NCBI GenBank assembly: GCA_963922205.1 | Contig: CAWUHX010000070.1 | Location: 558,001-622,000 of the forward strand | Length of the DNA stretch: 64,000 nucleotides | DNA from: Romanomermis culicivorax | Taxonomy: Eukaryota; Nematoda; Enoplea; Mermithida; Mermithidae | Direction: 5' to 3' | Shown: positions 1 through 35,260 of the stretch, in pieces | Layout: the number at the start of each line of letters is the position of its first letter | Numbering within the stretch: the stretch's first letter is position 1 | Translations under genes and position numbers: made by a program | The notes under the pieces: model-generated | Database searches by the model: none | Told to the model about the DNA's origin: nothing | Seen by the model: the letters and a program-made list of their open reading frames with translations, nothing else

Positions 1-1494
1 GCGCTCGCGTAGGGGTTGGTCGGCGGCTACGCGTTCGGTCCAAAGATCTTCAACTTCGTGAGGGAGCGGCGGCAAGTTGGGGTCGTTGTAAGGCATACGA
101 TCGCGGACGGCCAACTTGTATATTGGTGAAAGCGGAAAGTTGAGCAGCTCGATGATTCGATGGATGATATTGCTTTTCATGGCCGACGTGACGGCTGCTT
201 GAAGACGTTTGGGATCATCGAACACCGATTGGGGTTTTAGAGCCGGGTCTTCGTCATCGGAGACGTCTGGTGACTTGTTCCATTCGTCCTTCTGTTTCTT
301 TTTCTTCTTTTTCGGCACTTTCGGAACGGGGAGAAGCTTCGGGTGAGTTGTTTGCGTCAAGGGTTTGACGTCCCGGAAGCCGTTGGGAACCGTTCCTAAA
401 CAGAAAGACCGACCGTGGTCGGACGATGTGCAATCATACATAAAAAATTTATAAGCCGAAAGAACTTCATCTCGCATGATTGCAGGCAAGGCCACTTGCG
501 ATGTCGTCGGGTATATCCGGTTGGCGTAGTCGGGAGGTAGGACATCCGACAGCGCGACGTTGTGAAAGGTGGCGATGACGTACTCGGCTAGATGGTCGAT
601 TTCGGCGGCGTCCAACGAGTCGTGGGGAAACAACGCGGGCGCGTTGTAGACCTCGGGGATGAAGCCGTAACGACCAAATGCCAAGAACAATAGCAGCGGA
701 TAATAGGCGTCGAGAGCCGCGTATGCCAGGACGTCGGATTGTAGGAACGACGTTGTTGGATTGTTGAAAAAGCGGAGAGCGTGGGGAAAGCGTAAAGTGA
801 GCTTTGACACGTCTAGCGCCCACATTGCAGAAACTGTGGCTTTGAGCGTGCGTTTTTCCGGAAGGAAACCGATTCGTCGTGCCAACTCGTACAATGACGG
901 GGATATGTCGATGTTGCGAATAACGCGATACGCGTCGAAGTGGATTGCTTTTACGACGGGGTCTTTGTTTTTCTTTTGCCGGTCGGTTCGAAATTGAGTG
1001 CCCAGAAGCGCGTAGATTCCCGCCCAGTCGTCGGCTCCATCGAAAGAGACTACGATGGTGTGGTCGCTGTCGACTAGGGCGAAAAGCGCGGTCCAGTCTT
1101 CTGGGGTGGCGGTGAACGTTTCGAAGACGAACATCGTGCCATTCGGAAACGCGAGTTGAACGTAGCGGGGGTAACTAGATGCCGTGGGGTCGGCTGGCAT
1201 TTGAACGGTGCATTGAAATTGTTTGAAGTCGGCGGCTGAGATGGATTCGGTGTCGAAGCCGACCAGCATGTATCCACGGAAGTTTGGTGTGGGTTGGGCG
1301 GCCAAGGCCTGCCCCAAACTTCCGGGTGAAAGGAAAATCGGTGGCGGCAAGACGTTCGGGGGTCGCGCGTACATGGAAATGTACCACGACTCCAAATCGG
1401 CGAAGCGAGTTAGGCGTTTGACGTTGTTTTCTAAACAAGAGCGAATGCGATACTCATCAATGACACATGGGACACCACGTCGAATGAACGACAT
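1..1494 (-). CDS. TE-A ORF2: DEDDy 3'-5' exonuclease domain protein, 3' partial
   Basis: The reading frame is open from the ATG at 1494 to the window edge, about 498 codons, and is open further upstream to 1739. Numbering from that ATG, Exo I is FDTES (D81, E83), Exo II lies in FDGADDW (D155 or D156) and Exo III is YAALDAY (Y258, D262). This is the layout of RNase D/WRN/EXD-type exonucleases, which remove nucleotides from 3' ends of RNA or DNA. After the domain come a conserved RYGF block, a lysine-rich stretch at about residues 385-400 followed by acidic residues (NLS-like), and a helical region. TE-B carries the homologous ORF in the same place. Exact substrate is unknown. The domain call rests on motifs and on the alignment with TE-B, not on a database search. 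The true start may be the upstream exon or the ATG at 1569. Confidence 0.82.
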   Translation of the reverse strand, partial: MSFIRRGVPCVIDEYRIRSCLENNVKRLTRFADLESWYISMYARPPNVLPPPIFLSPGSLGQALAAQPTPNFRGYMLVGFDTESISAADFKQFQCTVQMPADPTASSYPRYVQLAFPNGTMFVFETFTATPEDWTALFALVDSDHTIVVSFDGADDWAGIYALLGTQFRTDRQKKNKDPVVKAIHFDAYRVIRNIDISPSLYELARRIGFLPEKRTLKATVSAMWALDVSKLTLRFPHALRFFNNPTTSFLQSDVLAYAALDAYYPLLLFLAFGRYGFIPEVYNAPALFPHDSLDAAEIDHLAEYVIATFHNVALSDVLPPDYANRIYPTTSQVALPAIMRDEVLSAYKFFMYDCTSSDHGRSFCLGTVPNGFRDVKPLTQTTHPKLLPVPKVPKKKKKKQKDEWNKSPDVSDDEDPALKPQSVFDDPKRLQAAVTSAMKSNIIHRIIELLNFPLSPIYKLAVRDRMPYNDPNLPPLPHEVEDLWTERVAADQPLRER

Positions 1495-1844
1495 GGGGTT
1501 TGAAGGATGATGTAAACATGAACGAAGAGGGAAGCGGTGTGGTGTTGTCAATTCGTTAGAAGTACACATGCTTTGAGGCGGCGTTGGCTTGGGCGGCGAT
1601 GTCACCTTGATGGGCGCACTTGGACAACTGGATCGGGCTACGATAGCGAGATAACGAGAGTTGTGGTATGCGGAAATCAAGGCAGCGGCCGGTTGTGGGC
1701 TGAGAAGGCCACAACTTGACGATGACGGGATCGCGGCGGCTGACCATGGAACTCTGACCCAAGACTACAGAGGGGGAGATACTCATGGGGTCCCAAGCAA
1801 AAGCATGCAAGTATAAGCAGCAAAAGCATAAAATGAGAAAATAC

Positions 1845-1983
1845 CGTCGCAGGCGAAACTTAAATCGTTCTGGTGGGGCTGCTGTTCGGCCCAGTGGACG
1901 TAACGTTCGTTGACGTTTATCGATTCGCGATACGGCGGAGGGTCGTCGGCCGTGGAGGATGATGCGGTCGACGGCGTCGTCAT
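1845..1983 (-). CDS. Probable first exon of TE-A ORF2 with PPPY motif
   Basis: An ATG at 1983 opens a 46-codon stretch rich in Thr/Ser/Pro, containing DDPPPYRES. A GT donor follows at 1844 (ACG|GTATTT). A CAG acceptor at 1742-1740 joins it in phase to the main ORF2 frame, which is otherwise blocked by a TAG just upstream. The predicted intron is 105 nt. The acceptor context TGGTCAG/CCGCCGCGA recurs in TE-F at 47064, which supports real use. PPPY is the classic ligand of NEDD4-type WW domains and a late-budding motif in retroviral Gag; whether it works that way here is inference. Alternative: ORF2 starts at an internal ATG and this exon is fortuitous. Confidence 0.5.
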
Positions 1984-2491: not shown

Positions 2492-5400
2492 CTATTGCGG
2501 GCGAGAAGTGTGGGGCGTGCGGGGTCCACCTTCCTCGTTGTCAAATGCATTTTTTGCCGGTCGTGGGACGAACGGTTTTAGACGTGTGATGGAGACTGTC
2601 TGCGGGCGGCCGGGCGCGTCAAGAGAGTCGATGGTAACAACGTTTTCGGCTGCGCGGGAGGCGTCCGTAATGAGGAAAGGCCCGATGAAGTCGGGTTGAA
2701 TCTTGTTGGCTTTTCGCGTGTTTGTCAAAAGAACTAAGTCGTTGACGGCGAAGTCGCGTCTTCGAGCTTTGCGGTCAAAATATTCTTTGCTGGCGGCGGC
2801 TGCGGCATCGAGGTTAGTTTTGATCTTTTCGTGCATCTTGAGTTGGGCTTGCGTTAGAATGTGTTGATAAGCGTCGTAATTCAACGGCAAGGTGAGGCGG
2901 CGGGCGCAGTCATAGTCGAAGGTGATGCGCGGTTCATATCCTCGTAATAAACTGAACGGCGAATGGCGTGTGGCTGTATGCGGCGTAGCGTTGTAAGCGA
3001 ACACGGCGTATGGCAGGTAGCGCTCCCAGTTGTCTGGATCGTCGGCGGTATACTTTTTGAGTTGGGCGATCAATGTTTGATTGAAACGTTCGACCATTCC
3101 GTTGCACTGGGGGTGGTACGCCGTTGTTTTGACTTTTCGAATTTTGAGAAGTTCACAGATATCTTGCATGAGTTTCGACGTAAAGCATCCACCTTGATCG
3201 GAAAGGAGTACAAGTGGGCTACCGTGCGTGAGGACGACGTTGTTGATAAAACATTCCACTATTGTTGAGGCTTTTTGATCTGGTATCGGATGCGCGGACA
3301 CGAATTTTGTAAAGTAATCCTGAAAAACAATAATGTAGGGACGCTTCTCACCTACTGGCGAAATGTTGACGATGTCGGTTGCCACGATTTCGAATGGGTG
3401 TTTGGGTTGAATTGGCAACAAGGGCGGAGGCGGTGACGTGCGCGGCGTTGTTAGTTGACAAATTTTACAGGTTTTGATCCAATCCCGAACGTCCTCTTCC
3501 ATGCGGGGCCACCAAAAGTGAGCTTTAATGGCTGCTAGCGTCCGATTTGTCCCTTGATGATTCAAAAGTTTGGTGCCGTGGAATTGGTGAAGAGTTTGGT
3601 CGACCATGGAGGCGGGTACGACTAATTGCTTGACATCTTTGATTTGCCAGTATAAGAGTTGATCTTCGAGAAAGAAAATCGGCGGGTGTTTGGCGGCGTT
3701 ATCCGTTTTGAGAGAGGCGATGATTTTTGTTATGGCCGGGTCCGCGGCTTGCGCTTTCAAAACTTCTTCGTGAGCGGCGATCGTAATGACCTCGGTTGGT
3801 GGCGGTTCGTGATCGGCGTCTTTAGGCATTGAATTAGAGAGTGTGGGTGAACTGATGGTCTTTCTCGTCATTGCACGGGTGATGGCGTTGATTTCGGCGT
3901 CGACCTCCGTGGATAGTGAAGCCACTGCTGGGCGTATTTCCGGTACCGTTAGGTCGGCTTCCGTAGTTGCACCAGCAGGGTGAAAATTTTCACGGAAGAT
4001 CTTTGCGGTCAAGTTTTCTGCGTTCTGGATCGGGCATTTGTCGCGGTCATCTTTCCTAGACAGAAAATCGGCGCAAGCGTTATCCTTACCTTTAACATAT
4101 TCCACTTTGTAATCGTAATCTTGTAGGCTGATCGCGAAGTGCTGAAGTCGTGAATTGCGGTGTTTCTCGTCTTTGAGCCATTCGAGCGGTTTGTGATCGG
4201 TGCGGACGATAACTTTCTGGCCGTACACATAGTGGCGATACATCCGGAAGCCGTATACAATGGCGAGGCATTCACGCTCAGTTGTACTGTAGCGGGTTTC
4301 GGCATCGGTGAGTACGCGACTATTGTAGGCGATGACCCATTGATCTTTTTCGTTTTCTTGATACAAAATAGCTCCGATGGCGGTCGTACTAGCGTCGGTT
4401 TGAATAACGAATTGAGCTTTGCCGTCGTAGACGAGGTAGCGGAGAAATGGCGAAGACGTAAGGGCTGTCTTGATGCCTTTGAATGCGGCGTGGTGTTCAT
4501 CCGTGGCGAAATATTGGGCGTCTTTGCGTAAGAGTCCGTACAAAGGACTGGACAAGGTCGCCAAATTCGGGATGAATCGTTTGCACCATTGAACTAGGCC
4601 TAAAAAACTCTGCATACCTTTTTTAGTCTTCGGGAATTCGTATTCGGCGATCGCTTTGACTTTCTCGGGATCGGCGGCGATTCCGCGGGCGCTAAGAAGA
4701 TGTCCCAGGAATTTGACTTGCGGCGGCAGGAACTCGCATTTGTCTGGTCGAAGCATAAGGTTGGCGGCGCGGAGGGCGTCAAAAACGATTTGAAGGTGTT
4801 CCAAATGCTCTTCAAACGAGTTCGAGAAAATGATGATATCGTCGATGTAGACGAGGCAGATTTTCCAGATATACGGGCGGAGAATTCGTTCCATTAAGCG
4901 TTGAAACTCGGCGGGCGCGTTTTTCAAGCCGAAGGGCAAAACTTTGAATCGAAACAAACCTTCTTGACAAATGAAGGTTGTTTTATCGCGGGAGTCGACG
5001 TCAAGGGGTACTTGCCAATACCCAGCTTTGAGGTCGAGCGTGGTGAAGAATTTTGCGTGTCCCATTGTGTCCAGGTAGTCGTCAATGCGCGGGATTGGGA
5101 ATTTGTCGCTCGGCGTAACATCGTTGATGCCGCGGTAGTCAACAACGGGTCTCCATGAGCCGTCTTTTTTCTTTACCAAAAATAGCGGTGCGGCCCAGGG
5201 CGAGCGGGATGGTTCGATAAAATCGTTGTCGAGCATTTCTTGAATGTGGCGACGGACAATCGGTCTCTGTTCCATTGCGGCGCGGTAATAATGGCGGGAA
5301 ACTGGTTTTGCGGTGCCGGTGTCGATGCTGATGGTCAACTCGCTAGTTATGGTTGGTTTATCGCCGGGGAGGCTGAAAACATCGCGGTGCTGTCGGAGCA

Positions 5401-8400
5401 TCCTGAGGGCTCTTGCTTTTTGCGCGGTAGAAACGTACGTCTTTTCTGTCATTTTGTTCAGGGCGTATTCCAGCTTTTGTTGTGCGGTGTTGCCGGGGAA
5501 TGATTTGTCCAATGCGGCCAGCTCGTGGTCGGTTAAGTCGCGGTCGGCGGCAGCGGTTGCTATCTGACAATCGGCGTGGGTTTCGGAATACTCCAGCGTG
5601 TGCTTTGCCATCGCAATGAGTTGATTTGGGCGGAGTTTGATACTGTTCGGCGTATTGTTGATGAAAAGGAGCGGGCAATGGCCGTTGGTGATGTTGACCA
5701 CTGCGGTTTCGACCGGAAGCTCTGCGGCAACGTTATCCGTGGCGAGTGGTTGTACAATCACATCGGGCACTGTCGCCGATGTTGTGGGAAAAACGCTACT
5801 TTTGACCCATTGTTGGCAGTGCGGCGAGATCGAAACGGAAACTTGGGGGACGAGAAAAATCGGTTCGGCGAGCTCAGTAACCTCCAGCCGCCGAGGGGGC
5901 GGTTGGTGTGGACTAGGTTGAGCGTGCCGTATCGGTTGTTCAACTTCGATTTCTTCGGGTTGACTAAAAATATCAGATTTATCATCATAACAGCTTACCC
6001 GTTCGTCCTCTGGTATTTCTTCTAAAACGTTATCGTTAGCGGCGTTGAGAAATAATTCCGTTTGCGGGCGGATCGAGGCGATTACCTTGAGCGGCAGTTT
6101 AATGTCTTGAATTTCGATGTAATTGTCTTTGAAATTTAAAATGGCGTGGATATCGGGATGCGCGAGGAAGTCGGTTCCAATGATGAATTGATTGTTTCCG
6201 TCGTCGTCAAGGATTACGCATTTGATCATGTGCTCCCCGAAGGCGGATTCCATCGTGACAACTACCGGGCCGTGAGCGTTGACTACGGCGCCGTCGGCTA
6301 CTTTAATTTTTCCACAAACCGGGAGCTGAAGCGATTGCTTGTCGAAAGCGCGTTTGACCAAACCTGATGAGAGGACGGAACATTGGGCACCTGTATCGAT
6401 GAGCGCGTGTGCTTTGACGGCTCCAATTTTGATGGGGATTTGAAAGGCTCTCGTAGAAGCGTACTTGCGAACAAACGATTTGGAAGATGGCGTGAGATTA
6501 TCAATTTGACAAACGGACGAACGAATATGACAGGGATCTTGAAAGGCGCGGCCTGTTGCGTTCCAACGGACGATGCCGGGGCTGACAATCGGCGCGGCGG
6601 AAGCGATTTCTTTGGATGGAACAACCATATTGGCCGCGGACGTTGAATGATTGTTAACGCGTGTTTCGAGCGCAGGTACTGGCGCCGTGTTTGGTGCCGG
6701 AAGGGCGGGTAGGGTGATTTGCAATTCTGAAGATTGAGAACTAGCGCGCGATGAATCCGTCGGCGTTGTGACGTATGGGGCCGGTACCGCGTTGTAATGA
6801 ATATGTTGTTCCCACGGCGCCGGAAATTGATGGTTCGGGTAGACGGCGTAGGTATTCTGAACAAAATCATTTGGGCGTTGTATAGAGTTACCTTCATAGA
6901 AATGGTTTCGCGCGCCGCGGGCGTAGTTCGCTCCTCGTTGGGGCGGTCCTCCGCGGCGGGGTCGCCAATCCCGTTGTCCGCGGACGTCGTTTGAATTGTT
7001 TCGGAAATCTACTTGCCGTGGTTGGGCGGCGTAGTTTGGGCGATTTGGTTCAAGTCGGGCTGATTGTTGAGCGTTTTGCCGTTTGAGCCAGACGCAATCT
7101 TCAGTGTTGTGGGTGCGGGATTTGTGAGCGTCGCACCACAGACCTGCAGGTTGCGTCGTGCGTGCGCGGTCTCTGCTGGTGGATCGGTCGAAGCGGTTTG
7201 CGGACGGCTCTCTGTTCTGAGATGGATGGCGCGGGCTTTGTTGCCTATTGCTGGATATCGTTTCTTCAGGGCGTTGTCGAGATTTTCGTTCTTCATAGTC
7301 GCGGTTGTATCCTTGAATCAATTGTTCCAAAAGCATCTCCGTGCGCGGCGGTTGCGGCGGCAGTGGCTCAATTGCTTGTGGTTGGAAAGAGACGAATTTA
7401 GTGGGTTGCATCGCCGGGTTTTGCGTCCTGCGGTCCATTGAGGGAGAGCGCTCGCGGTAGCGATTTTGAGGACGGTCCATGCTGCGGCGGCGTTCGAAAC
7501 GGCGGTCAAATGGTTGCGGTGACTTCGGTGGTGGCGCATCTTGCTCGGCTTGATTTACCAGAATGGGTCGTTCCGCGGTTCCGATTTCGGCTTTAGTTGC
7601 GTTGAGGACACTACGGGCTTTGGCTACGGCGTCGGCCAGTTGTTGAACATTTGTAAAACCCTTTGCTTGTTCGCCAATTGTGAGTTGATAGAAAACAGGC
7701 ATTTTGGTCAAAAAGGTATCAATTACTTGTTTATGCCGGAAAGTTTGATCTTCATGCTGATACAATAGTTGTACATAAGTCATTACCTTACTCAGGAATG
7801 CGGCGGGTTCCTCTCCGGCTTCTGGCGTGATTGACGCAAGTTCGCGTTTAAGAGTCATTGGATTGCAATCGGGCGCCAACTGGAACATGAGCAAATGTTT
7901 GGCGTCTTCATACCGCGTCATATCTTGGATCATATCGCTCGGCGTATCGCGGGTAAGTCGGCGAAGGGCACTCATCTTTACGTGGTTGGAGGCGTCGTAG
8001 CCGAACTCATTTTCCAGTCGTATGAAGAAGCGTAACAGGCGTTTATTTGTTGCGGCGCCGTCGATGATCAGCGGGTGCATATTGTCAACGATTGTTTTGA
8101 TGCGGCTATCTTCCTCACGATGAGACGTGCGCGGCATGTCGTACCGAGGATGCGGGTGCTCATAATAATCCTCGGGTGGATAATCTGAGAAGCCAAATTG
8201 GTTTGCCGCGGGCGGTGGGCGTCTTTGAAGCGCGGAACGGTGTAAATCTTCATCGGCGCGCGTATTGCGGGCGAATTCGTTATTATATAGGGTATCCGTT
8301 GACGGTGCTTTTGGTTTTACTTGGTTTGGTAGCCTGCCAAAGACTGGAGCCGGTTCAGTTTCACGGAGAGTTTCGTTAGGGATATAAATATCTCTTGTTT

Positions 8401-9115
8401 CCTCGCCGTGAAACCGTGAGGACACCGGCGGCGGTCTTGGTGTAGGCGGATTACGCGCGTGCGTTGCGGCGGCGGTTGTGGAAATCAATTGTTGCATTTG
8501 TTCGGCGAGCGCGGCGAAACGCGCGTTAGTGGCTTTTGTTTGTTCTTGAATTTCGCGTTGAACGCGTAATTGCTGGGCTTGGAATTGATCGGAGACGGAG
8601 CCGATAATTTGATCGATGGTTTGTACTGTGGGGACATTGTTGGTTATACGCGCGGCGGCGGTGTTGAGTTGTTCCAGCGCGTCACGTGCTTCAATTCGAA
8701 AATTTTGGACTTCGTTGGCGTTTGCGATAGCGAGACTGCTGCGGTGATCGTTTACTGAAGCACGGGTGGCGGCTGGGGCTCGCGGTGGTTCAATATTGAC
8801 AAAGGATTCGGAAGAGTCGGTTCTGGCGACAATTTGGTCATCATTACTTCGAGCCGGCGCGGGCGGTGGCGGCATTTGCGATGGGGGCGGCGCGTTGGGG
8901 CGATTTTCGGCGGCGGCATGAAGGTTTTGGTTTACAAGCCGCGGAGTTTGGGAAATATTCGTCGCCGCAGTTGCGGGAATGAGCGGTGCTTGCGGCTGTG
9001 CCGTCCCGTCCAGCGCGGGAGTGCTGAAATTAGACAAGGGCGGGTTATGGGGCGGGAGGCTTACGGTGGGTACCGCTGTCGATTGCGTAATATTTGACGG
9101 TCGCGGCAACATCAT
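2492..9115 (-). CDS. gag-pol: TE-A Gag-Pol polyprotein, intact
   Basis: One frame of 2207 codons starts with ATGATG at 9115. The N-terminal third is Gag: a Pro/Ala-rich leader, a retrotransposon capsid-like helical region (about 340-520), Arg-rich stretches and a zinc knuckle of the CX2HX4HX4C type ([14 protein letters not shown], about 659-672). Then come a retropepsin with IDTGAQC (about 907), reverse transcriptase with YIDDIIIFS (about 1423), RNase H with TDHKPLEWL (about 1636), and integrase with an HHCC zinc finger (about 1840-1885) and the D, D, E triad (VATDIV about 1910, SDQGG about 1971, MVERF about 2005). A basic C-terminal tail follows with no chromodomain seen. Gag and Pol share one frame, so no frameshift is needed. 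All catalytic residues I can check are present, so this copy could be functional. Confidence 0.95.
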
Positions 9116-9355: not shown

Positions 9356-9359
9356 GTGT

Positions 9360-9951
9360 TGTATCTTGGTTTGTGTCGGGGCGGGAATGATGCGGCGTGA
9401 GCAGGATTGGGATTCCGAGGTTGCGTCCTTAATGTACGTGCGTCCCACGCCCACGTTTACCCGATTACCTAATTACTAGTACTTAAACCCCGACAATAAT
9501 TATCCCCAACAATTAAAGAAAACCTAGTTTCTTTAATTGTCTCCCTACTTTCTCACTAACTAAAAATGAAAGGGCTTTCCTACCTATTTATTACTATACA
9601 ATAAACGTACGAAAACTTACGTGACAAAACGCGACGGGCGAGGCGAAGAATAAAAATAACAATGATAAATCTACTCCCACGCACGGGCGAGCAAAGACGA
9701 AAAGGCGTGGTGGGAGGCAGCTAATACGTACTAGTGGTGGCCGGCGGGGCACACAACTAGTAGAGAAAATAAAAACACACGTAAAATATACGTAACGAAT
9801 AAGCGAAGAAAGAGACCAGCGCACGCGTACCGGCGTGCGCTACAGTAAGATGGCCACTGGTGGTCCGCGTTGCTCTCTCCACTTGCCACCTGCGGGCCTG
9901 TGACGCGTTTTGACAAAACAATAAAAAATCGGCGGAAAACACACTACAACA
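9360..9951 (-). repeat. TE-A 5' LTR (592 bp)
   Basis: In element orientation it begins TGTTGTAGTGTGTTTTCCGC at 9951 and ends in CA at 9360, next to the primer-binding site. The first 30 bases closely match the LTR start of TE-F, so the boundary is well supported. The partner 3' LTR is outside the window. Short ORFs across this stretch are fortuitous. Confidence 0.8.
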
Positions 9952-10271
9952 TTCAGCTTAGGCTGCGGATTAAGATATCCTGAAGTCCCTGTGGCTCTGT
10001 GCACAGGGACGAACCGAAGGATCTGCGAAGCAGGGAGGAGTCCGGCGTTTGTGTTCACGTATTTTGGCACTTTGCATATTTGTTTCCCATTTACTTTCAC
10101 TGTTGTATTCTACTACACTTTTCGTTTGCTCAAAATAATTATCTTCGTACATCAAGTCTCAGCTAACTGCAGTAGGATAGTAATTAGTACCCGGTTAGCA
10201 TCAGGGGCCGTACCAGATTGGATCTCTCAAGAACTGCCGGTAGGCAGCCGAGGGCATATGAGCACGCAATA
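9952..10271 (+). repeat. TE-B 5' LTR, distal part only
   Basis: This matches 22784-23102 with about 96% identity. It begins abruptly at the TE-A LTR edge, while the 3' copy continues about 512 bp further upstream. The missing part is therefore predicted to lie left of TE-A, beyond the window. LTR end is at the CA at 10267-10268 or a few bases later; TTCA at 9952-9955 is the candidate TE-A target duplication. Confidence 0.85.
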
Positions 10272-10277
10272 GGACAT

Positions 10278-10415: not shown

Positions 10416-12473
10416 ATGGCAAATATGGAAGCAACCATCGAACAAGTAGCAAAGAAATTCGCGAATGTACCCAATGATAGGGACAAATATCAAACTATTG
10501 ACGCAGAAATATATGATTATGCGGATCATGGGATACAAATGTCCTCTGATTCAGTGTTATTCTTCGAGAAAATTAGTTTATCTCCAGAAACGAATGTGGT
10601 ATCATTTTATAATTCAAGATATATGCCTACAATACCGAAAATTGAAGCGAAAATTGATATTGAAACAAAATTGAAGAAGGAAACAGAAAGGGTAACGAAC
10701 GGAAATATCCAGGATGTGGCCACTTTAGCCATCCTGGAATCAATGCAAAGAGCCGTTGACAAATTGACGAATGCCGTTAATGTAGAAAGAACAAAAGCGG
10801 CACTTCCGGAACAAGAAATACTCGAGCAACTCATGCGAGAAAGAGCAGAACGTAAGTTATGGGAAGAGAAGTTTCGAGAACAAGAACAGCAAAACTCAAG
10901 AAAGATAATGGAAGAAGTTGAGAAACAAATGCGAGAATTGATGAAGAAAATGGATAAGAGAACCGACGAAAGAATATCGAATCCTGGAGATATGGAAATA
11001 CTTCCGTCTGAACCGGTCAAAGATCATTTAGACAGGAGTTTAGAAAGAAAAGTCAATTGGTTTGAAAACCATTTCGGCCAGGCCCAGGCTCAAGGTACCC
11101 AACATCGAATGATTGAAGATGAAATACCAACCACCTCATGGAATACCGGAACAGAACAACCCATAGCAGCAGGCATTCCTCGAAATCGACAGGAGTATGG
11201 ACAATATTGCGAAGATCCCGAAAAAAGAATGAAGATAATTCTAAGTCGAATGAAAAATAAAGAAATATCGGATAAAATGGAGGCTGCAGAAATACTCAAT
11301 TTTTTCCCGTGTTTGGAAGGCACATTCAAGCCTGAAGACACAGAAGACCTAAGAATTGAAGTACTCTGGCGTTGCTGCGATTTTGAAACTTCGACATATG
11401 TGGATAAGAACTGCAGCTATGAAGAAGGAAAAGCAAGCGTGATTAGAATGATCGCCCCCAAAATGGACATTCCTGCACTCAGAAGGGAGCTACATGATAA
11501 GAAAAAACGAAAAGGGGAGAGTACAAAAGATTTTTTGCGATGAATAAAGACTTATGTCCATTTATTAAATTACGAAAAAACGGAAAATGAACGAAATCGA
11601 ATTGTTATCGAAACGTATTTTCACAGAGCTTTAGTTTACTTCCAAACTCAAATGGAGGGTCAGCTTCAAGAATTCAAAAATATCACCTCTTTGGCAGAAT
11701 TCGTAAATAAATTGAAAGCTGATACGACAGTCTGGAAGGAATTTAGCGAGGATCAAGAAGACGGCAAAGACGATCAGTTGAATCGAGTCTATGAAAATAG
11801 AAGATTTAATAATTTACAAATTCGTCAGCAGGATAGCGGTACTGGTCAACAACAGCAAATTTCGCGGCCTCAGCAAATTTTTCCACTGCCACCACCATTT
11901 CAGGCCCCTTTATCTCAACAGGACATTATGAAAATGGTTAATGACGCAATTAGGAATCAGGGCCCTCCAGCTCTTAATCCTTGGGGAGTCAATAGTAATC
12001 CTAATAATGTATCATACAATAATTTACCTGATAGAACTTTGGGAAATCCCTATTGTTCATACCATAAATCGAATAGTCACTCATCCGAAAATTGTTTTAT
12101 TGTCCACCCTGAATTGATTCAACCAACGGATCAGGGGAGGTCGTGGAATCGTGGTAACAATTTTTATAATTGAAATTTTGACCAGCGTGGTGGCTTTGTA
12201 AATTGTGGACGAGTGGGTTTTGTTAATTTTGGTCAATGGGTGCCATATCACAATAATAATACGGAACAAAATCCTAACGTGGCATATTATTATCGCCAAA
12301 ATAATGTCCTGCAGCCACCGTCAAATATTGTACCATCAACATCATCGCAAACGACCAATAATCCTACAAATAATTCCATAAACGTTATAAATTCACAGGA
12401 GGCTAAAAAACAAGATAAGCCGGAAATTATAGCCTTAGATGGAGTTCTTATAGAAAATTACAAGTTAAGTTAG
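10416..12473 (+). pseudogene. gag: TE-B gag, interrupted by three in-frame stops
   Basis: A single frame begins at ATG 10416 and shows a long charged coiled-coil (roughly residues 125-195) and a capsid region alignable to TE-A (LRREL...KTYVHLL beside LKREL...MTYVQLL). A Gln/Pro-rich linker and a CX2HX4HX4C knuckle (CSYHKSNSHSSENC, about 12057) follow. TGA at 11541, TGA at 12171 and TAG at 12471 interrupt it, but sequence on both sides stays in frame and homologous. This is point-mutation decay rather than separate genes. The first TGA aligns to a lysine in TE-A, so an ancestral Arg CGA codon is plausible. Confidence 0.85.
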
Positions 12474-12539
12474 GCGAATGTTATCAATTCTACTTCAGAA
12501 GCGAAACCTAGACTCGCCAATAATAATGAACATCTATTT

Positions 12540-14960
12540 TTGGAAAACTTTCACAAATGCCAACCATTATTAATACCTGTTAAACTATGCAGAGAAGAAT
12601 TTAAAGCCTTAATCGATACGAGAGCACAATCCAGCTTTATGAGGACAGATACAGCGTGGAGACTACTGAATACACCAAAGACAAAATTCTCTATCTTAAA
12701 TTCAGTAGTAACAGCTGTAGGAAAACGTGTAACAACATATGGTCCTACATTTATAAACGTTGGAACCGGTTTTGGAAATTTTCTTGCTAGATTCGCATTG
12801 CTAGATAACCTGAACGAAGGTATTATATTGGGTCTAGATTTTCTAACCCATCCTAGTATACAGGCGTCTATTGATTTTGGGAAAGGTCATATATGTTTAG
12901 CAAATGTAGAAAGACAGATAATTAGTGAAACATTATTCGACAATGCACAAATACCGTCGCGGTTGCCAATTCCTACAAACCCGATGGTTTCGGATTATGT
13001 ACCTATAAAGGAAGAGGTTAAGGAAGAAGATCTGCCTGAATTAGAAAGCGATGATGAACAAGAACAAGTTATGCGAATAACCGAAATGGAGGAAGAAACT
13101 TTTATCTGGACAAAAAATGGGACATATATTCCTCCAAATACCACTTCTTTTGTGCAAGCTGTGGTTTGGCCACAGAAAAATTGGACAAAGAGTCCCATAG
13201 TCGTAGAAGAAACAGGGAGGGACACTTTATTCGACGTTGACGCCTCAATTGTGGATGCTAAAGACAATAATTTCCGAATTCTACTCATAAATGAAACAAA
13301 TAAAGGGATAAAGCTGCGTAGCAATGAGTTGATAGCAAAGTCCAAAACGAAATTCATGGGGCCCGAATTTGATGAGAAAATACATAAACTTCAGACAGAA
13401 CCTCAAATTCAACAACACAGTGAACCAGAATTTATCAAAATTGTGACGCAACTAGTGGAAGAATCAAGTATCGATCGAGAAGGGCAACAGCAACTTATGA
13501 ATGTCCTACTCAAACATAGGCATGCATTCAGTATGAAAAATGACCCTTTAACGATGACCCATGAGGCACAACATAAAATCGATACAGGAGACACATTACC
13601 CGTTCAAAAGCACTATTGGAGAGCCCCTATCATGCAAAGAGATATTATTCGTGAACATGTGAAAGATATGATGGAAAAAGGTGTCATCGAGCCCTCTAGA
13701 AGCCCTTGGGCTGCACCATTGTTTTTAGTGGGCAAGAAAGATGGCACTTGGAGACCAGTAGTTGACTATAGAGGAATCAATCAAGTAACGAAAGAGGATA
13801 AATTCCCGATACCACGAATCAATGATTACTTAGATGCGTTGGGAGGTGCACGCTATTTTTCGACTTTGGACTTAAAGTCCGGGTACTGGCAGGTGCCAAT
13901 GCACTCCGAATCGAAAGAAAAGGCAGCATTTATATGCCAAGATGGTCTTTTCCAGTTCAAAGTAATGCCATTCGGGCTTAAAAATGCTCCCCCAGACTTT
14001 CAGCGTCTCATGGAGCAAATTCTGTATCCATATGTATGGAAAATATGTTTAGTATATATCGACGATGTAATAATTTTTTCAAAAACCCTCGAGGAGCATT
14101 TAGAAAATATAGAGACCATTTTTCGATGTTTAACAAATGTGAATCTTACATTGAAACCTGACAAATGTTCCTTTATGCCAGCCAGTGTAAAATTTTCAGG
14201 CCACATATTGGATAAAAATGGAATGTCAGTCGATCCACAAAAAATAGAAGCAGTAAAAAATTTTGAAGTACCTAAATCCATCAAGCAGCTACAGAAGTTC
14301 TTGGGATTGGTACAATGGTCCAAACGGTTCATACATAACTTAGCTTTCATCGCCCAGCCTTTATTTAAAGCCCTCGTAAAGAAAAATAGGAAGGAGAAGT
14401 TTGAGCTTTCAGAAGAACAGTTAAAAGCTTTTGAAGGTATAAAAAATGCCCTAATGACGGCACCCTTCCTTCGATATCCAGTATTTGACGGATCGGCGAA
14501 ATTTGTCATCCAAACTGATGCCTCAGGGACAGGGATAGGTGCGATTTTGTACCAGGAAACAGAAAGTGATCGCTGGACAATAACCTACTTGAGTAGAGTT
14601 TTAAACGACGCCGAAACAAGATACTCCACTACGGAAAGAGAGTGTCTAGCCGTAGTCTACGGGTTCAAGCAATACCGACACTATGTTATGGGGTTTAGGG
14701 TCACAATCAGTACAGATCATAAACCACTTACATGGCTTTTGGCCGAAAAACAACAAAATCAAAGGTTGCTGAAATGGGCCTTATATCTTGGGCAATTTAA
14801 TTATACATTCAAATATGTAGCTGGACGTGAAAATGCCTTCGCAGATTTTTTATCAAGATCTGACGAGAAAGAAAAGATTCGAAACAAAAAACGGGAAAAG
14901 AAAGAACAAATTGGGGACGAGAATGTGAACATGGAACCGGAATGCATGGCAGTAACGTGA
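12540..14960 (+). pseudogene. pol: TE-B pol: protease, reverse transcriptase, RNase H
   Basis: This continues the gag frame. The protease motif reads IDTRAQSS at about 12612, where TE-A has IDTGAQCS, so the essential Gly of DTG is Arg, explained by one G-to-A change; protease should be inactive. Reverse transcriptase is complete with [19 protein letters not shown] (about 14054) and the FLGLVQW region. RNase H has the TDASGTGIG start, the ERECLAVV block and TDHKPLTWL (about 14715). The frame ends at TGA 14958 and resumes at once in the same frame with integrase. Confidence 0.92.
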
Positions 14961-14963
14961 GCC

Positions 14964-16328
14964 ATGACAAAACAAATGCTTGAACCTGAGACACAGGAGA
15001 CATTTATCGACCCACCACTGCCGACGCAACAGGAAATAGATCAAATGCCGGAGGAAGCGAAAAAGGAGTCCGAATTATTTTCATTGGAATTGATTAAGAA
15101 ACAACAGCGACTAGATTCGAAATTGGTGGATATTTTTCGGAATATTGGCAAAAATAGTTCGAAAAAATACTTTAACAGTTTTCACTTGGAAAATGAAGTA
15201 TTATACCGAGAAAATATCCATGGAAAAAACCAATTAGTAATTCCATCAAGACTTAGACATCTTGTTTTGCATCAATATCACGGCGACACCTTAATGGGAC
15301 ACCAAGGAATAGATAGAATTATCGCTGCAATCGGAAATAAATTTTGGTGGTCGAATATGGAGGACGATATTATCAAGTGGATAAAATCTTGCATCGTATG
15401 CCAATTATGTCACCCCATATCAAACCCGATTCAACCACTCAATCCCATACCCGTTTCTTACCCTTGGGAAATAGTAGCTACAGATGTGGTTAGTATTTCG
15501 CCTCTACGGGAAAAAAGACCATACGTTATCGTATTTATGGATTATTTTACGAAATGGGTCGAAGCCAAATGTATCCCGGACCAGAAAGCCGATACCATAG
15601 TAAAAGCATTTATGGAGAAAGTTATTTATACCCACGGGACGCCGAAATATTTGCTGAGCGACCAGGGCTCAGCATATATGTCTCAATTAATGCGGGACGT
15701 TTGTGATCTTTTGAAAATAAAGAAGATAAATAGGACACCATACCACCCGCAATGCAATGGTATGGTGGAAAGATTTAACCGAACCCTAATTGAACAAATT
15801 AGGAGGGTGGCGATAACCGATCCAGATGATTGGCCTCATTATCTGGAGCAAATTTTATTTGCTTATCGGATTACGCCCCATAAAACCACAAAAACCTCCC
15901 CTCATAGTTTGTTGTACGGGCATGAGGCGAGATTTCAGATAGACAACGATATTGCGAGGCCAATAATTGTGCAAAATGATTACGAGACCTATAAATACAT
16001 GTTAATGGAACATCTCCTTAACACATACAAATTTATAAACGAAAATCACAAAAAAACGGCGGCCGAACGAAAATCACAGTACGACAAGAAGGCTCGCGAG
16101 AAAACATTCCTAATTGGTGAACTTGTGCTCTACCAAAAAGGAATCATTAAAGGGAAAGCCGACACAACGAATGACGGTCCCTATGAAGTGATAGAAACAC
16201 AAAATTTAGACAAAAATGTCATAAAAATACGCCGCGCTGGGAAACCAGATTCGCGAGTACAAATAGTTTCCATAAATCACGTAAAGCCTTTTGTTACGCG
16301 GACACCCGATTTTTACTGTAGCTTATAA
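14964..16328 (+). CDS. TE-B integrase, in frame after a TGA
   Basis: 454 codons. The N-terminal HHCC zinc finger (HQYHGDTLMGHQG ... CIVCQLC) is followed by the catalytic core with VATDVV, LSDQGSAY and MVERFNRTL, the DDE triad. The C-terminal segment ends with a basic domain and SINHVKPFV, matching SITRLKPFV in TE-A. Only the upstream TGA separates it from RNase H, so it was part of one Gag-Pol polyprotein. Core residues are all present. Confidence 0.93.
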   Translation: MTKQMLEPETQETFIDPPLPTQQEIDQMPEEAKKESELFSLELIKKQQRLDSKLVDIFRNIGKNSSKKYFNSFHLENEVLYRENIHGKNQLVIPSRLRHLVLHQYHGDTLMGHQGIDRIIAAIGNKFWWSNMEDDIIKWIKSCIVCQLCHPISNPIQPLNPIPVSYPWEIVATDVVSISPLREKRPYVIVFMDYFTKWVEAKCIPDQKADTIVKAFMEKVIYTHGTPKYLLSDQGSAYMSQLMRDVCDLLKIKKINRTPYHPQCNGMVERFNRTLIEQIRRVAITDPDDWPHYLEQILFAYRITPHKTTKTSPHSLLYGHEARFQIDNDIARPIIVQNDYETYKYMLMEHLLNTYKFINENHKKTAAERKSQYDKKAREKTFLIGELVLYQKGIIKGKADTTNDGPYEVIETQNLDKNVIKIRRAGKPDSRVQIVSINHVKPFVTRTPDFYCSL

Positions 16329-17020
16329 TTCATTTTTATCGTTTTATTTGTGCGTTGTGTTCGAATTTTGTTTTATGTGTCTTTTTTAACGTTCTATGTA
16401 TTATATCTTTCCCATTTTTTCCCTTTTTCCCTTCAAATTTTTTAATCGTTCTGACTTATTTTTGGCAATTTTATGGCAATTTTAGGCATTTATCAAAAAT
16501 TACGATGCTGGAAAAATTTTAATGGGCAAAATTATATTTTTTCACGCGCTTGATGTGAGAAAATCAAAATGCTTATAAGTCCTGAGAAAATCCTCCCAGA
16601 GTTAAATCCCATAAATTCGAGGTGTTATGGAGCTGCTTTTTAGATTTGATTTGCAAAATATTAGTATATTGATAATTTTCGTCGATTGGAGATTTTGTGA
16701 AATTCGAATGCGAACACGCTATGGCTACCTCCAGTATCGTCGAAGTCGATAATAGTTTTGGGCAGCCACAAGACCGCCAAGATAACACCAATTTCCAAAT
16801 TAGTAGTAAGTTGTAAAAAGGGTAGAATATGTGGTAAAAATTTTTTATTTGAAACAGGACTCTAAATTGACTGGCAGGCAATTTATATGCCGAGGATTTT
16901 GGGTGTTCGAAAGCCTGATCAACTCCCCTATGTCCAAATTTATTCTTGAGCAGTTGAGTCATTTTTGTTTTGGAGTTATTGTAAAAAAAGAGTAGGTAAA
17001 AAATTGTGTGAAAATTTTAA
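16329..17020 (+). other. TE-B spacer between integrase and ORF2
   Basis: AT-rich, about 0.7 kb, no convincing ORF on either strand. Its position equals the TE-A spacer that contains the proposed splice signals. The first ATG of ORF2 lies at 17114 while the homologous frame opens at 17021, so a splice acceptor in this spacer is plausible but I could not pin it down. Confidence 0.5.
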
Positions 17021-19515: not shown

Positions 19516-20244
19516 AGAGGCCTCGGAAAATGCAGGCAAGTTCTGAATAAAGCCTTGAAAGAAGGGAAATATGTCGTGGATTTCCAATACGGGAGGGTAT
19601 CTCTTTCGAACCCGTGTGTTCAGAAATACCTCGTGCACATGGTTCCCACTCTGGACAAAGAGGTAGCCCTCATGACAACGGATTTGATAAATCGTATATA
19701 CCACGAAGCAGGAATCGAAATAGAAACGATACGATACTACGAATTGCAGTTTCACGTGCTGCAGGCGAATTTCCCCGAGAAATTGTGGAATATTTTGGAA
19801 CTTCAATTAGCCGAATGGACAATGACTCGCCCTCCGTGGAAAGCATACGAAGCTGCCGTGTGGGCCTGCGCTTGTTTATTTATGAAATTGTCGCGATTGG
19901 GGAGAATTCCTCAGAATTTCGCGGGATTCCATTATCAGGCCCACGCCTACGTTACGATGAAATTGCGTCGCGAATTTAACACAAGACAAGAGGGAGCAGG
20001 CAGTAACTTTCACGCTTTATACGCCTCATGCCAGTCCAAGGCAGCGGGATTAGCGTATACAATTGCCAAGGCCGTCTTACAAGATAAGAAAGATCCGGAG
20101 CCGAAATATGCGAATATTCAAGTATGGAAGAAAGAAACTGACAACACCAATCCCCATATATGCTTTTGGGAGGTAATTGATCGAAAGAAAGCTCATGATA
20201 TTTTGGAAGTCAAAAAAAGTTTGAAAAAGAAAATCAGATACTGA
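19516..20244 (+). pseudogene. TE-B ORF2 C-terminal helical domain
   Basis: It is in the same frame as the preceding block; one TGA at 19513 separates them and there is no frameshift. The sequence is rich in aromatic and aliphatic residues (for example YYELQFHVLQ and AYEAAVWACACLF), predicted helical and without a clear membrane anchor. A similarly placed and similarly patterned ORF exists in TE-C at 26213-26590, suggesting a conserved element-specific domain. I do not recognise the family. It ends at TGA 20242, after which the frame stays open about 70 codons. Confidence 0.6.
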
Positions 20245-20311
20245 GTTAAGCACGCCCACAATAGGCCTGCGACAAGTAAGGTATCCAAATGGTGGGCCAG
20301 AAAAGATAGCC

Positions 20312-21052
20312 ATGTGCGAAAAAGAGAGAAATCGGCCAAGCCGGACAAAGATAGGAAAAGGAAACAGGAAAGTTCGGCATCGAGACGAAAGCTGCCACGA
20401 AAAATTGATGTCCAGGGAAAAGAAACGAAGGGAGATGGAAGAAGAAAGTTGGCGTAATGAAATGGATGATTATGAAAAGGCCTACGAAAGAAAAGAAAAA
20501 GAGAAAAGAGAATCGAAAGAGCATAAAGAGAGTCGAAAGTCACGAAGTAGAAAGAGGACTCCAGGTTACTACCAGCAGGATGATAGATTGGACGTGTCCT
20601 ACTCCAGTCGAGCAGCTTCACTGGATAGGCCTAGAGCCAATGAAATGACTCAACAAGGAGTACCGATGTCCGACCCGAATGCAATGATGCTAGTGCAACA
20701 ACAACAGTTACCGTATTTGCCGCCGAACTACCCAGGATTGCCCATGGTAGGATTTGATTGTTTGAGTCGCCCTCTTTTTTCAGGCCAAATATTGCCAAAT
20801 ACGATGGTACCACCGCTGGCACAGTACCAAGTGCCGCAATTCCCGATTATGCAATTTCAGCCGGGTCAACCGCAATATTACCACCAATTCTTGGTTCCGC
20901 CCGGCCTCCAAATGCCGCCGCCTACCATAATCCTGCCAATTCGTAACGTACAAAGCGAGGAGAGAATGGACATTCCTGGGACTTCGACGGCTAGGCAACC
21001 CCCCCCCAAAGACCGCCGTCGACGGGAAATCCTGATTACATATCGCCATTGA
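20312..21052 (+). CDS. TE-B ORF3-like charged/proline-rich protein, possibly the shifted end of ORF2
   Basis: 246 codons. The first 90 are Lys/Arg/Glu-rich with SRKSRSRKR; the rest is Pro/Gln/Met-rich with low complexity (LPYLPPNYPG, QVPQFPIMQF, QPPPKDRRRR). The preceding ORF2 frame overlaps it in another phase and is also basic there, so one frameshift could unite them. This composition fits a disordered nucleic-acid-binding tail. No homolog is recognised, and TE-A cannot be compared because it runs out of the window. Confidence 0.5.
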   Translation: MCEKERNRPSRTKIGKGNRKVRHRDESCHEKLMSREKKRREMEEESWRNEMDDYEKAYERKEKEKRESKEHKESRKSRSRKRTPGYYQQDDRLDVSYSSRAASLDRPRANEMTQQGVPMSDPNAMMLVQQQQLPYLPPNYPGLPMVGFDCLSRPLFSGQILPNTMVPPLAQYQVPQFPIMQFQPGQPQYYHQFLVPPGLQMPPPTIILPIRNVQSEERMDIPGTSTARQPPPKDRRRREILITYRH

Positions 21053-22257
21053 AAAGAGAACCAGATATTGGTCAGCCGGGGCGGGACCACAGTGGTCACA
21101 GACAGAAGTAAATTTTTTGTTAAAAATGACCCCGCTCTTCGTGAGGTCACCATAAAGTAACTATCTCGTTGTGTAATTTTTTCCGATAATTCAAAAGTCA
21201 CTTATTTTTCTTTTCGAGCATCAGTATTACAAATTGGAAACCCGTTGTGCCACACTCATTATGCCTTAAAATTGCCTCTTTTATTAATCTCAGAAATTTG
21301 TCTTGGTTATTTTCTCGTTTGCATTGCGTTTTATTTAAATCTGTACAAAGATACCTTGTATTTCTTTTTCGGTAAATCTGTGTAAATTATCATCCAATTC
21401 TTGTATTTTTGCAAATTGATTATTCTTTTCCTTTCCAAGAAGTAGTCACCAACTAATGTCGTGCAGGGTGTAGGCAGCTTCGCGCTACCATGATTTTTTT
21501 TCTCTACCTTTTTTCCAAAACATATATTTTCATTTCAAAACTTTTTTTTGTGTGGCACAGACCGTGTTATGGGTTTAAGTTTACCTTTTAATAAGGCAGA
21601 TTCACTTTAACAACAAATACCATAAATATTTTGGTTCAAAATCTAGACAGCCAAAGGGCCAGAGGATTCGGTCTTCGGGCATCCTTTCTCCCTGGGGGCA
21701 GATAATACCAAAGGCGTTGGGGGGCCAGTGTCCGGCCAAGGGGCCAGGGGAGCAGCGGTGGCGGAAAATTTGAAAGTCTTGTGGGCTCTCCACATTTAAC
21801 AACCCCCCTCCAGAGAGGACGGAGACGAAGGCCACAATCGGTGATGGAGGAGCCGCCGATACCAAACACATCGACGGCAGTGGGGAGCGGCCCACAACCT
21901 AAAACGGGCACCACCGGGGTCGCCGCTGATCAAACGATTTTTATTTTGTCAAATTCGGCCCGAGTGCCGCGAACGCTATTTGTTCAAACTTTTTATTCTT
22001 TTTATTCGGGTCAACGGGCCCACTGGGCATTTTATTGGCAAACTTTTTCGTGCCGGGGTAGCATCCGGCGCCATTGGCCCCATAGTTGTAATAATACCGT
22101 TCGATACAGGCGTTTTATTTTTTATTGGTTTTATTGCGTCAATGGCGCGTAGCGTCGTTTTTTGAACGTTTGGAGTCGCCGGTCGTCGGCATCGTTGGTC
22201 TGGGGCCCTTGGGGGACCTCCTGACTTTTCCCTTCGCTGGCGGGAAAAGTCTTGAAT
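21053..22257 (+). other. TE-B 3' untranslated region
   Basis: 1.2 kb with no convincing ORF. The first half is T-rich; the second half is GC-rich with G runs. Short ORFs here on both strands look fortuitous. Confidence 0.5.
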
Positions 22258-28482: not shown

Positions 28483-28487
28483 TATTT

Positions 28488-29930: not shown

Positions 29931-30062
29931 GGAAATTGATGACCCTGCATTTTATTCAACATTACCCGCCATAACTAATGGCCCCCAGACTACTTTAGGA
30001 ACCATTATGCCCACTACCCACTGATGTAGCGAAGAGTACGTCCTCGACCTGGACGTACCTGA

Positions 30063-32414: not shown

Positions 32415-32417
32415 AAT

Positions 32418-33265: not shown

Positions 33266-33965
33266 TCATGAGACCATACACATTCTGACTGTTATATTCT
33301 GAGCCCAAAATATATTCATCGAAAGGCGTTTGAGAGGACATGGTGTCCAAGGTGATGAGGGTGTTAACCCTTTTGCCACCTCGGCTTGCATTCTTTTTTT
33401 ATATTCATGCTGGGCAGTTTCTTCCGCCTGTTCATCCACCATTACTTGAATCCTCTCAGATAATTCACCTTCAATCACTTCCAAAATATGAACTTCAGGC
33501 AAGTTTTTATCCCCATAGTAGTCAGGAGTAGCCAAGGATTTTTCAAAAACATGTTCAGCCAATTGCAGCAGGCAGTTTCAAAGAACCAACAGTTGTAGGT
33601 GTACCCATTGTCTATTGTTTTATTATCATCCTCAGGGCGATGTTTACTTCTTGAATCTTTGAATATGAGAGGGACAATTGCCAATCAGCTATACATGAAA
33701 TCGATCCCATGGTGATATCATGGGGTTCCTTCTCAATCATTGAGCCCATGGCGATCTAGTTTCCTCTGGCCGCGGTTGGAGTGGTGCTTTCACAATGTAT
33801 ATGTTTCTTTGTTTGTTCATCAGTCCTAAATTGGTCGAGAATAATCCTAATGTTCTGTTTAAGTTTTAATCCTTCATCTATTGTGGCAGGCCAAAGATAA
33901 TACAATATGGGACTAATTTCATTAGCCTCTCTATTATGGTTCCACATGTAGGATTTGTTAAACAA
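33266..33965 (-). pseudogene. TE-C ORF2 middle remnants right of the TE-D insertion
   Basis: 33965-33756 contains SPILYYLWP followed by QFRTDEQTKKHI, which aligns to NPLIYFLWP and VWRNEQERIEF in TE-B ORF2 at 18375-18475 with similar spacing. 33562-33266 is a Glu/Lys/Gln-rich helical stretch (DEQAEETAQHEYKKRMQAE) like the TE-B coiled-coil. These show that the C-terminal part of ORF2, not only the exonuclease, is shared between the elements. Confidence 0.6.
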
Positions 33966-34599
33966 AATCGGACGTAGGTGTAGTGGATCCTTTCCTAGAC
34001 CAATCTGGAAGGTAGTGGGTTTGGATATTTTATCCCCTCGGGAAAAACGAGGACATATAGCATTCCCAAAGTTAGGGGTTCAGCATCTGAAGGGTCAGAA
34101 GATGAATATCACCCCAAGGCTTCATACTCTGGTAAGGTGACAGGATCAGTATTTCTGCCTTGTTCCATTTTGTCAATGTACGAGTACATTTCATCCTTTT
34201 CTTTTTCTTTTTCTTTTTGCATTCTCTTCAGGTTTCATATTGAAGGCTTCAGTTTATCAGCTTGGTTAACAACGACATAATTGCGAAAACCCATTACAAA
34301 AGGGTCATTATGCAGCATGATATTGTGGTTTATTTTTCAGTATGAGCAGTGAGAACCAGCTGTTTCTTGGTCAAGATGAGTTATATAGCGCTGAGTTGCT
34401 TCTTGCTAAATATAGAAGGTTGCTCACGAAGAAAATGGCAATTTTCTGACTGGAACACAGAACATGTCAGCATCATGATCATCCATCGGCTGTCCTGCCA
34501 ATGCTTGATAAATCCGATCAGCTGTGTATGCAATATTTGAAGCCATTTGAAAATCGTGCACACATGTTGGGAAATGTTTTGTATATTATCGCAAAGGTG

Positions 34600-35260
34600 G
34601 AAGTGAAACATGGTGAAAACGAAGTTAGGGTAAGTCTACTGTCGATAGTGGCGTACCATTAGAGCTGCCTCCTCAACACTGATGATAGCAGTTGATTTCA
34701 AACCATATAGCTCTCGAACCTTACCGAAAATAGGGTTGGGTTCATGCCCAGGAATTCAGAGGCAAGCCCCTTTAGAGCCTGGGCATGTGGAGAAATGCTG
34801 AGTTGATCAAAAGTAGCCAGGGATAATTTGAGTTTTGAGATCATACAAGACTACTTTGATATAAGCTATGATATCATTGGCACGGTCCTCAAATATTATC
34901 TGGTCCCAAATACTCCTGAAAAAACAAATTTGTATGATAGGTAATATATCCTCTTTCATTTGAAAGCCTAATATAACCTACTGTTCCATAAAGATTTCTG
35001 GAGCAATACACTGCCAGGTGGAGGGCGAAATGGTTACAGTGTCAAAGATGAAATTATAACCCCAAGTGGTAGAAAGAGTCACTGAGTGGGCGAACATTTT
35101 GTTGCTTTTTGAAGGCATTTTCTGGTTGTAAACAATACTCACAAATGCCACATATTTTTGACTGGAGACTTGTTCAGTATTTATTGCAATGATTTTTTTG
35201 CCCCAGAACTGTGATTCCTGTAATTACTTGATCATAATAGCATCCATTACTCCAATCTGT
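34600..35260 (-). pseudogene. TE-C ORF2 exonuclease domain, decayed
   Basis: The minus-strand translation from 35222 gives FWGKKIIAINTEQ (Exo I with Asp changed to Asn), a stretch STTWGYNFIFD like STMCGKNFIVD in TE-B, a stop, then ILGFQMKEDI (Exo II) beside IVGFQIREDI in TE-B. Further on come DRANDIIAYI..VLYDL beside RRDNIDYI..CVYDL, and after a frameshift LSISPHAQALKGLASEFLG beside IGISLEAPSLKALMTEVLF. Exo III is visible in another frame as WYATIDS at about 34650. At least two frameshifts and two stops make it inactive. Homology to TE-B ORF2 is clear over more than 150 residues. Confidence 0.72.

What the first reader, a model, noticed from the sequence alone, without database searches (positions are those of the whole stretch)
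1..35260. Three LTR retrotransposons carry a DEDDy 3'-5' exonuclease ORF in the env position
Seen: after pol, TE-A (1-1494) and TE-B (17021-18061) have homologous ORFs with D..E, D and Y...D signatures (FDTES/YAALDAY; ALDMES/GFQIREDI/RYAKLDAG), and TE-C (34600-35260) has a decayed version. Known: this signature defines RNase D/WRN/EXD-type exonucleases; env, where present, occupies this slot in gypsy-type elements. I do not recall a described retrotransposon clade with such an ORF2. Inference: captured once in an ancestor and kept under selection, since the catalytic residues survive in two diverged elements.
Basis: partly seen in the sequence, partly recalled or inferred. Interest (0 to 1): 0.92.

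Follow-up and report, generated by a model that had tools for sequence, protein, structure and literature searches.

The report
Worm retrotransposons carrying an exonuclease gene
Two families of jumping genes in a mosquito-parasitic worm carry, beside their usual genes, an extra gene that begins with a likely RNA- or DNA-trimming enzyme and that natural selection keeps about as strictly as their integrase; similar captures were already described in rotifers.

Summary
The window is Romanomermis culicivorax (mermithid nematode). Ty3/gypsy-type elements TE-A and TE-B carry homologous ORFs between integrase and 3' LTR (25% identity) with the DEDDy residues D-x-E / D / Y-x3-D at aligned places. TE-C keeps a fragment; TE-D, a TE-A relative, shows none. 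In the genome the gene is multicopy (117 and 74 scored copies, lower bounds); TE-B-type exon 2 reads 1,357-1,361 codons in 12 of 12 copies, TE-A's 1,554; integrase lies upstream in 27 of 28 copies. Selection is strong: omega 0.076 for exonuclease and integrase alike, 0.044 for the exonuclease core (15 copies). The exonuclease assignment is likely, not proven: motifs, a homologous ORF matching PF01612 (E 6.1e-5), and two low-confidence models whose fold lists are rich in EXD2-type nucleases. TE-B-type genes have a coding first exon and an intron with splice sites kept in 28 of 28. The claim that no such clade is described is wrong: rotifer Juno/Vesta LTR elements carry a DEDDy ORF3 (PMC5408684). 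Filed as a new variant of that kind; activity, substrate and role are untested.

The parts
9357..9951 (-). TE-A 5' LTR; 595 bp, 99.2% identical to the 3' LTR outside the window; 4-bp duplication TTCA on both sides of TE-A
2495..9115 (-). TE-A gag-pol frame, 2,207 codons (protease, RT, RNase H, integrase)
1845..1983 (-). TE-A ORF2, possible first exon (46 codons and one base)
   Evidence: resembles gene models P0031 and P0035
1431..1844 (-). TE-A possible intron at the same aligned place and phase as TE-B's; acceptor uncertain
   Evidence: P0031 agrees, P0035 reads another acceptor
1..1430 (-). TE-A ORF2, exonuclease domain and the part inside the window; motif residues D171 (1254-1252), E173 (1248-1246), D246 (1029-1027), Y348 (723-721), D352 (711-709)
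9952..10276 (+). TE-B 5' LTR (part to the right of the TE-A insertion)
10416..11543 (+). TE-B gag-like frame
   Evidence: weak match to TE-A gag-pol, E 3e-5
12474..16328 (+). TE-B pol: protease-like, RT and RNase H (12474-14960), integrase (14961-16328)
16721..16805 (+). TE-B ORF2 first exon, 28 codons and one base
   Evidence: begins with ATG in 27 of 28 loci; pN 0.081, pS 0.591 in its frame
16806..17021 (+). TE-B ORF2 intron, GTAAGT...TTTTAAG
   Evidence: both sites in 28 of 28 loci; 208-231 nt (one search prints one less, leaving out the last G)
17022..18061 (+). TE-B ORF2 second exon, exonuclease domain; motif residues D60 (17198), E62 (17204), D125 (17393), Y229 (17705), D233 (17717)
18062..21108 (+). 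TE-B ORF2 remainder, interrupted in this copy; uninterrupted copies exist elsewhere in the genome
22774..23107 (+). TE-B 3' LTR
34834..35232 (-). TE-C fragment of the exonuclease domain
   Evidence: E 7e-7
45228..54644 (-). TE-D: TE-A-like element (LTR pair 97.6% over 577 bp) without a match to ORF2

Best explanation
TE-A and TE-B are two lineages of Ty3/gypsy-type LTR retrotransposons of R. culicivorax that carry, probably from a common ancestor, a DEDDy (RNase D/EXD2-like) 3'-5' exonuclease as the N-terminal domain of a long ORF2 protein, in TE-B made from a spliced message. Shown: place between integrase and 3' LTR, homology of the two, kept motif residues, purifying selection equal to that on integrase, a coding first exon and conserved splice sites in TE-B-type copies. 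Inferred: the fold (about 0.88), catalytic activity (about 0.75), that full-length RNA escapes splicing to serve gag-pol and replication, and that the enzyme trims 3' ends of the element's own RNA or cDNA as an auxiliary step of its cycle (about 0.5, the figure given below).
For: Position: integrase upstream in 27 of 28; 3' LTR in 12 of 12. Selection. Residues. Fold: L043, an open frame homologous to both (E 8e-17 and 1e-12 in a comparison with just these two), matches PF01612 at E 6.1e-5 (23.3 bits, cut-off 23.6); a profile of the three lineages has one PDB hit up to E 10, EXD2 at E 0.022; EXD2, apicoplast polymerase exonuclease and Egalitarian stand high in the fold lists of both models; UniRef names P0009 and P0014 '3'-5' exonuclease domain-containing protein'. 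Splicing. Role: the rotifer authors also proposed processing of retrotransposon RNA 3' ends.
Confidence: 0.5

Rival explanations
1. Counter-defence: the exonuclease trims or destroys host silencing RNA, so that the element escapes small-RNA silencing.
For: Strong constraint and high copy number. The host is reported to lack Piwi, and clade I nematodes to have RRF-3-type RdRP; DNA methylation machinery is reported for R. culicivorax (PMC4323106, passages). A viral ExoN is reported to suppress innate immune signalling in arenaviruses (PMC7968707, start of abstract in a listing).
Against: No small-RNA data examined. The related host nuclease MUT-7 is cited as acting in silencing, the opposite direction (PMC5408684, passage).
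Confidence: 0.25
2. RNA-binding accessory protein: the DEDD fold binds element RNA, and ORF2 serves export or packaging of unspliced genomic RNA, as CERV does in Cer1, with or without catalysis.
For: Conserved intron in ORF2; Cer1's spliced accessory protein CERV is required for export of genomic RNA (PMC10309623, abstract and passages); basic tail of TE-B-type ORF2; catalytically dead DEDD proteins that bind RNA are cited for EXD1 and Maelstrom.
Against: All motif residues kept in 27 of 28 loci, more than a non-catalytic binder needs. No CERV relative was looked for.
Confidence: 0.15
3. ORF2 is a degenerate or disguised envelope protein, or a chance ORF with a motif.
For: Env position only.
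Against: Highest 19-residue hydropathy 1.17-1.42 in 12 TE-B-type copies; TE-A's maximum, 1.72, falls on the motif-III helix; no Pfam fusion protein in 4 full ORF2s; omega 0.044 over the motif core; PF01612 match of the homologous ORF.
Confidence: 0.02

Closest known systems
Juno and Vesta LTR retrotransposons of bdelloid rotifers (Rodriguez et al. 2017, PMC5408684; abstract, section 3.1 and passages seen)
   Same: LTR elements with PR-RT-RNase H-IN pol and a DEDDy (RNase D-like) ORF after pol; also absent from some related families
   Different: Rotifers: dUTPase in pol, motif changed to DEED, ORF3s without significant departure from neutrality, ORF shared with Athena/Penelope-like elements. 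Here: no dUTPase match, DEDD kept, omega 0.076, exonuclease followed by about 1,000 to 1,200 further residues, a conserved intron (TE-B type). I did not compare the sequences
Cellular DEDDy exonucleases, EXD2 nearest here (PF01612)
   Same: Motif order and residues; PF01612 match of a homologous ORF; best PDB profile hit and fold matches
   Different: Very low sequence similarity; embedded in a retrotransposon; long unrelated C-terminal part
Cer1 of Caenorhabditis elegans with CERV (PMC10309623; abstract and passages seen)
   Same: Nematode LTR element with an accessory protein from a spliced mRNA
   Different: The word exonuclease does not occur in the paper's main text; CERV's role in genomic RNA export is shown there, ORF2's role is not known

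Membership tests
DEDDy 3'-5' exonuclease (PF01612 type) | D-x-E, D, Y-x3-D in order (signature as recalled and as in PMC5408684) | tested here: met
   D60/E62, D125, Y229/D233 in TE-B; D171/E173, D246, Y348/D352 in TE-A
DEDDy 3'-5' exonuclease (PF01612 type) | match to the family profile | tested here: inconclusive
   TE-A/TE-B proteins: 2 of 28 members at best E 0.13. Homologous ORF L043: E 6.1e-5, 23.3 bits against a cut-off of 23.6; 24 bits, over the cut-off, with its neighbours in the frame
DEDDy 3'-5' exonuclease (PF01612 type) | DnaQ-like fold | tested here: inconclusive
DEDDy 3'-5' exonuclease (PF01612 type) | 3'-5' exonuclease activity | not testable with these tools
   needs purified protein
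Ty3/gypsy-type LTR retrotransposon | LTRs, target duplication, pol order PR-RT-RNase H-IN | tested here: met
   TE-A: LTRs 99.2%, TTCA duplication, Pfam order. TE-B: LTRs 96%, Pfam order; its own duplication was not found
Rotifer Juno/Vesta lineages | dUTPase between protease and RT | tested here: not met
   no dUTPase family in TE-A gag-pol at E up to 1 or in TE-B 12474-14960 at E up to 0.01
Rotifer Juno/Vesta lineages | DEDDy ORF after pol | tested here: met
   architecture; sequence relation to the rotifer ORFs not tested
Env-bearing (errantivirus-like) element | membrane-anchored fusion protein after pol | tested here: not met
   hydropathy; no Pfam fusion protein in 4 full TE-B-type ORF2s

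The most novel reading that the evidence does not exclude
A nematode retrotransposon lineage has turned a captured exonuclease into a retrovirus-like, spliced accessory protein that disarms a host silencing system without piRNAs, with the conserved intron acting as a signal on the unspliced genomic RNA; the other multicopy PF01612 frames in this genome would belong to a wider pool of exonuclease-bearing elements.
Probability: 0.12. Interest if true: 0.88.

Novelty: new variant of a known kind. Interest (0 to 1): 0.62.

Why it matters
It suggests that exonuclease capture by LTR elements is not confined to rotifers and gives a case with strong, measurable selection on the captured gene, which the rotifer study did not report. 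Many uninterrupted copies make it testable what an exonuclease does for a retrotransposon, and the conserved intron asks how an element that moves through RNA keeps unspliced RNA.

Tried and rejected
Relatives outside the species: protein searches gave 18, 33 and 49 proteins, all named R. culicivorax. Candidates need shared 5-residue words and lists were capped (7,996 and 7,995 scored in 20 and 90), so absence elsewhere is not shown.

Profiles: PDB searches (single proteins) found nothing; two gave only pentatricopeptide and alpha-solenoid repeat proteins on one 25-residue stretch (repeat artefact); one gave three unrelated chains and EXD2 at E 2.4; 118 (L043 alone) gave two unrelated chains. 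hhalign of A5 with E. coli RNase D matched only 15 columns around motif I (P 0.13). Sub-cut-off Pfam matches such as DUF4350, CMS1 and FACT-Spt16 were set aside. UniRef's name 'DNA-directed DNA polymerase' for P0025 was not used.

Intron: a common RNA fold is not established (RNAalifold -34.3 kcal/mol, but 1 of 52 pairs with changes on both sides; single-sequence z -0.12 to -1.73; one Rfam match far below its cut-off). A hidden coding exon is not supported: every frame of the block has stops in at least 6 of 27 copies, although one frame shows pN 0.074 against pS 0.194.

I first took AACA as TE-B's target duplication and withdrew it. Not reached: whether L043's frame and the 608-614-aa PF01612 frames lie in retrotransposons; dN/dS for TE-A copies; a tree of ORF2 against pol; comparison with rotifer sequences.

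In print: searches of the paper library listed no title or abstract reporting such an ORF in a nematode; I read only the papers cited, and the library lacks most subscription journals.
Full report
What the window is. Both ORF2 searches returned only proteins named Romanomermis culicivorax (18 of 18 and 33 of 33). The window lies in a genome of 359,112,060 bases in 595 contigs, the figures of the R. culicivorax v2 assembly (359.1 Mb, 595 scaffolds; PMC10879605, passages).

Anatomy. TE-A lies on the minus strand: 5' LTR 9357-9951, gag-pol 9115-2495 (2,207 codons; protease, RT, RNase H, integrase by Pfam), then ORF2, which runs off the window. In the genome the frame read from window 1431 goes on for 1,554 codons, and a 3' LTR 99.2% identical over 595 bp follows. 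A 4-bp duplication, TTCA, shows that TE-A is inserted in an LTR of TE-B type. TE-B lies on the plus strand: LTRs 9952-10276 and 22774-23107 (96% over 325 bp), gag-like frame from 10416, pol to 16328, ORF2 from 16721. In this copy ORF2 is interrupted after the exonuclease domain; in 12 other copies it is not. TE-C keeps a fragment. TE-D (45228-54644; gag-pol pieces 40-87% identical to TE-A) gives no match to either full ORF2.

The gene in the genome. TE-B ORF2 as query: 117 scored copies of 2,802 first-look candidates; by my count 34 of the 117 have an open frame of 1,355-1,361 codons and no stop in the match. TE-A ORF2: 74 scored copies of 3,821 candidates, 96-98% identical apart from the window's own, 52 of 74 with frames of 1,600 codons or more by my count. 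These are lower bounds. I fetched 28 TE-B-type loci: the 8 best (one is the window's own) and 20 picked for long frames. Integrase lies upstream, about 0.7 kb away, in 27 of 28; none is seen in L008, which also lacks exon 1. In 12 copies read further, exon 2 is 1,357-1,361 codons in 12 of 12 and a 3' LTR follows in 12 of 12. No copy away from pol was established, but no other copies were looked at; TE-A-type copies other than the window's were not fetched.

Selection. The exonuclease region is 1,038 nt in 28 of 28, 26 of 28 have no stop, D60, E62, Y229 and D233 are kept in 28 of 28, D125 in 27 of 28. Over 26 copies omega is 0.091; median dN/dS is 0.035 for the 166 of 325 pairs with dS above 0.2. 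In the 15 of 28 loci with both genes full and open, omega is 0.076 for exonuclease, 0.076 for integrase and 0.044 for exonuclease residues 50-250. Between three subfamilies synonymous sites are near saturation (pS 0.65-0.75) while pN is 0.06-0.07. Picking open frames biases frames, the ratio less. In unselected gene models motif residues are often lost, as expected of decayed copies.

Splicing. TE-B-type ORF2 starts with a 28-codon exon, coding by its substitution pattern (pN 0.081, pS 0.591 in its frame, reversed in the others; a stop in 1 of 27 copies), then an intron of 208-231 nt with GTAAGT and TTTTAAG in 28 of 28. Exon 1 and exon 2 joined there would give the reading of gene models P0007 and P0009. 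TE-A has a comparable first exon and a possible intron at the same aligned place and phase; gene model P0031 agrees, P0035 uses another acceptor, and I could not test it across copies. TE-B's intron differs by 0.14 between subfamilies 1 and 2, where synonymous sites of the exonuclease differ by 0.74: constrained, or exchanged between copies. It is not coding and no fold is shown. No transcript was seen. An element that moves through RNA keeps an intron only if genomic RNA escapes splicing (inference); Cer1 needs CERV, from a spliced mRNA, to export genomic RNA (PMC10309623, abstract and passages).

Mechanism. Shown: an element-borne gene with exonuclease residues under constraint. Inferred: an active enzyme that trims 3' ends of RNA or cDNA in the element's cycle (preferred), or attacks silencing RNA, or works through RNA binding and export. 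Rodriguez et al. proposed 3'-end processing for the rotifer ORFs and discussed silencing. ORF2 has no clear transmembrane stretch, which speaks against an env role.

Known or new. DEDDy ORFs in LTR elements are known from bdelloid rotifers (PMC5408684). The nematode elements show no dUTPase, keep DEDD, have a far longer ORF2 and strong constraint. Hence a new variant of a known kind.

Noticed in passing
G000, e.g. C69:277875-278369 (+) and C101:824477-824971 (-): A PF01612 search of the genome gave 116 matches; 14 of 116 lie in open frames of 608-614 aa (by my count), which looks like a second multicopy exonuclease-bearing family. Its surroundings were not read.
   Followed up: no
window 28029-33249: A 5.2-kb unit between 454-bp direct repeats (93%) holds an ORF at 31490-32080 (+) that matches Monjiviricetes_fusion, a viral fusion glycoprotein (E 4.1e-11); perhaps an LTR element with an env captured from a negative-strand RNA virus, or an endogenous viral piece.
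   Followed up: partly
window 41345-41992 (-): ORF with a Hint module (E 1e-27), lying in a stretch that is repeated at 58863-61115 (77%).
   Followed up: partly
window 16806-17021: The TE-B intron is far more conserved between subfamilies (0.11-0.16) than synonymous sites of the neighbouring exon (0.65-0.75), without being coding; cause unexplained.
   Followed up: partly
TE-A and TE-B ORF2 after about residue 350: Long C-terminal parts without Pfam match in four TE-B-type copies and without significant similarity to each other; TE-B's tail is rich in arginine and lysine, both tails in proline.
   Followed up: partly
window 43588-56490: TE-D is flanked directly by a second repeat pair (43588-44972 and 55133-56490, 89%), so it is probably nested in another duplicated element.
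   Followed up: no
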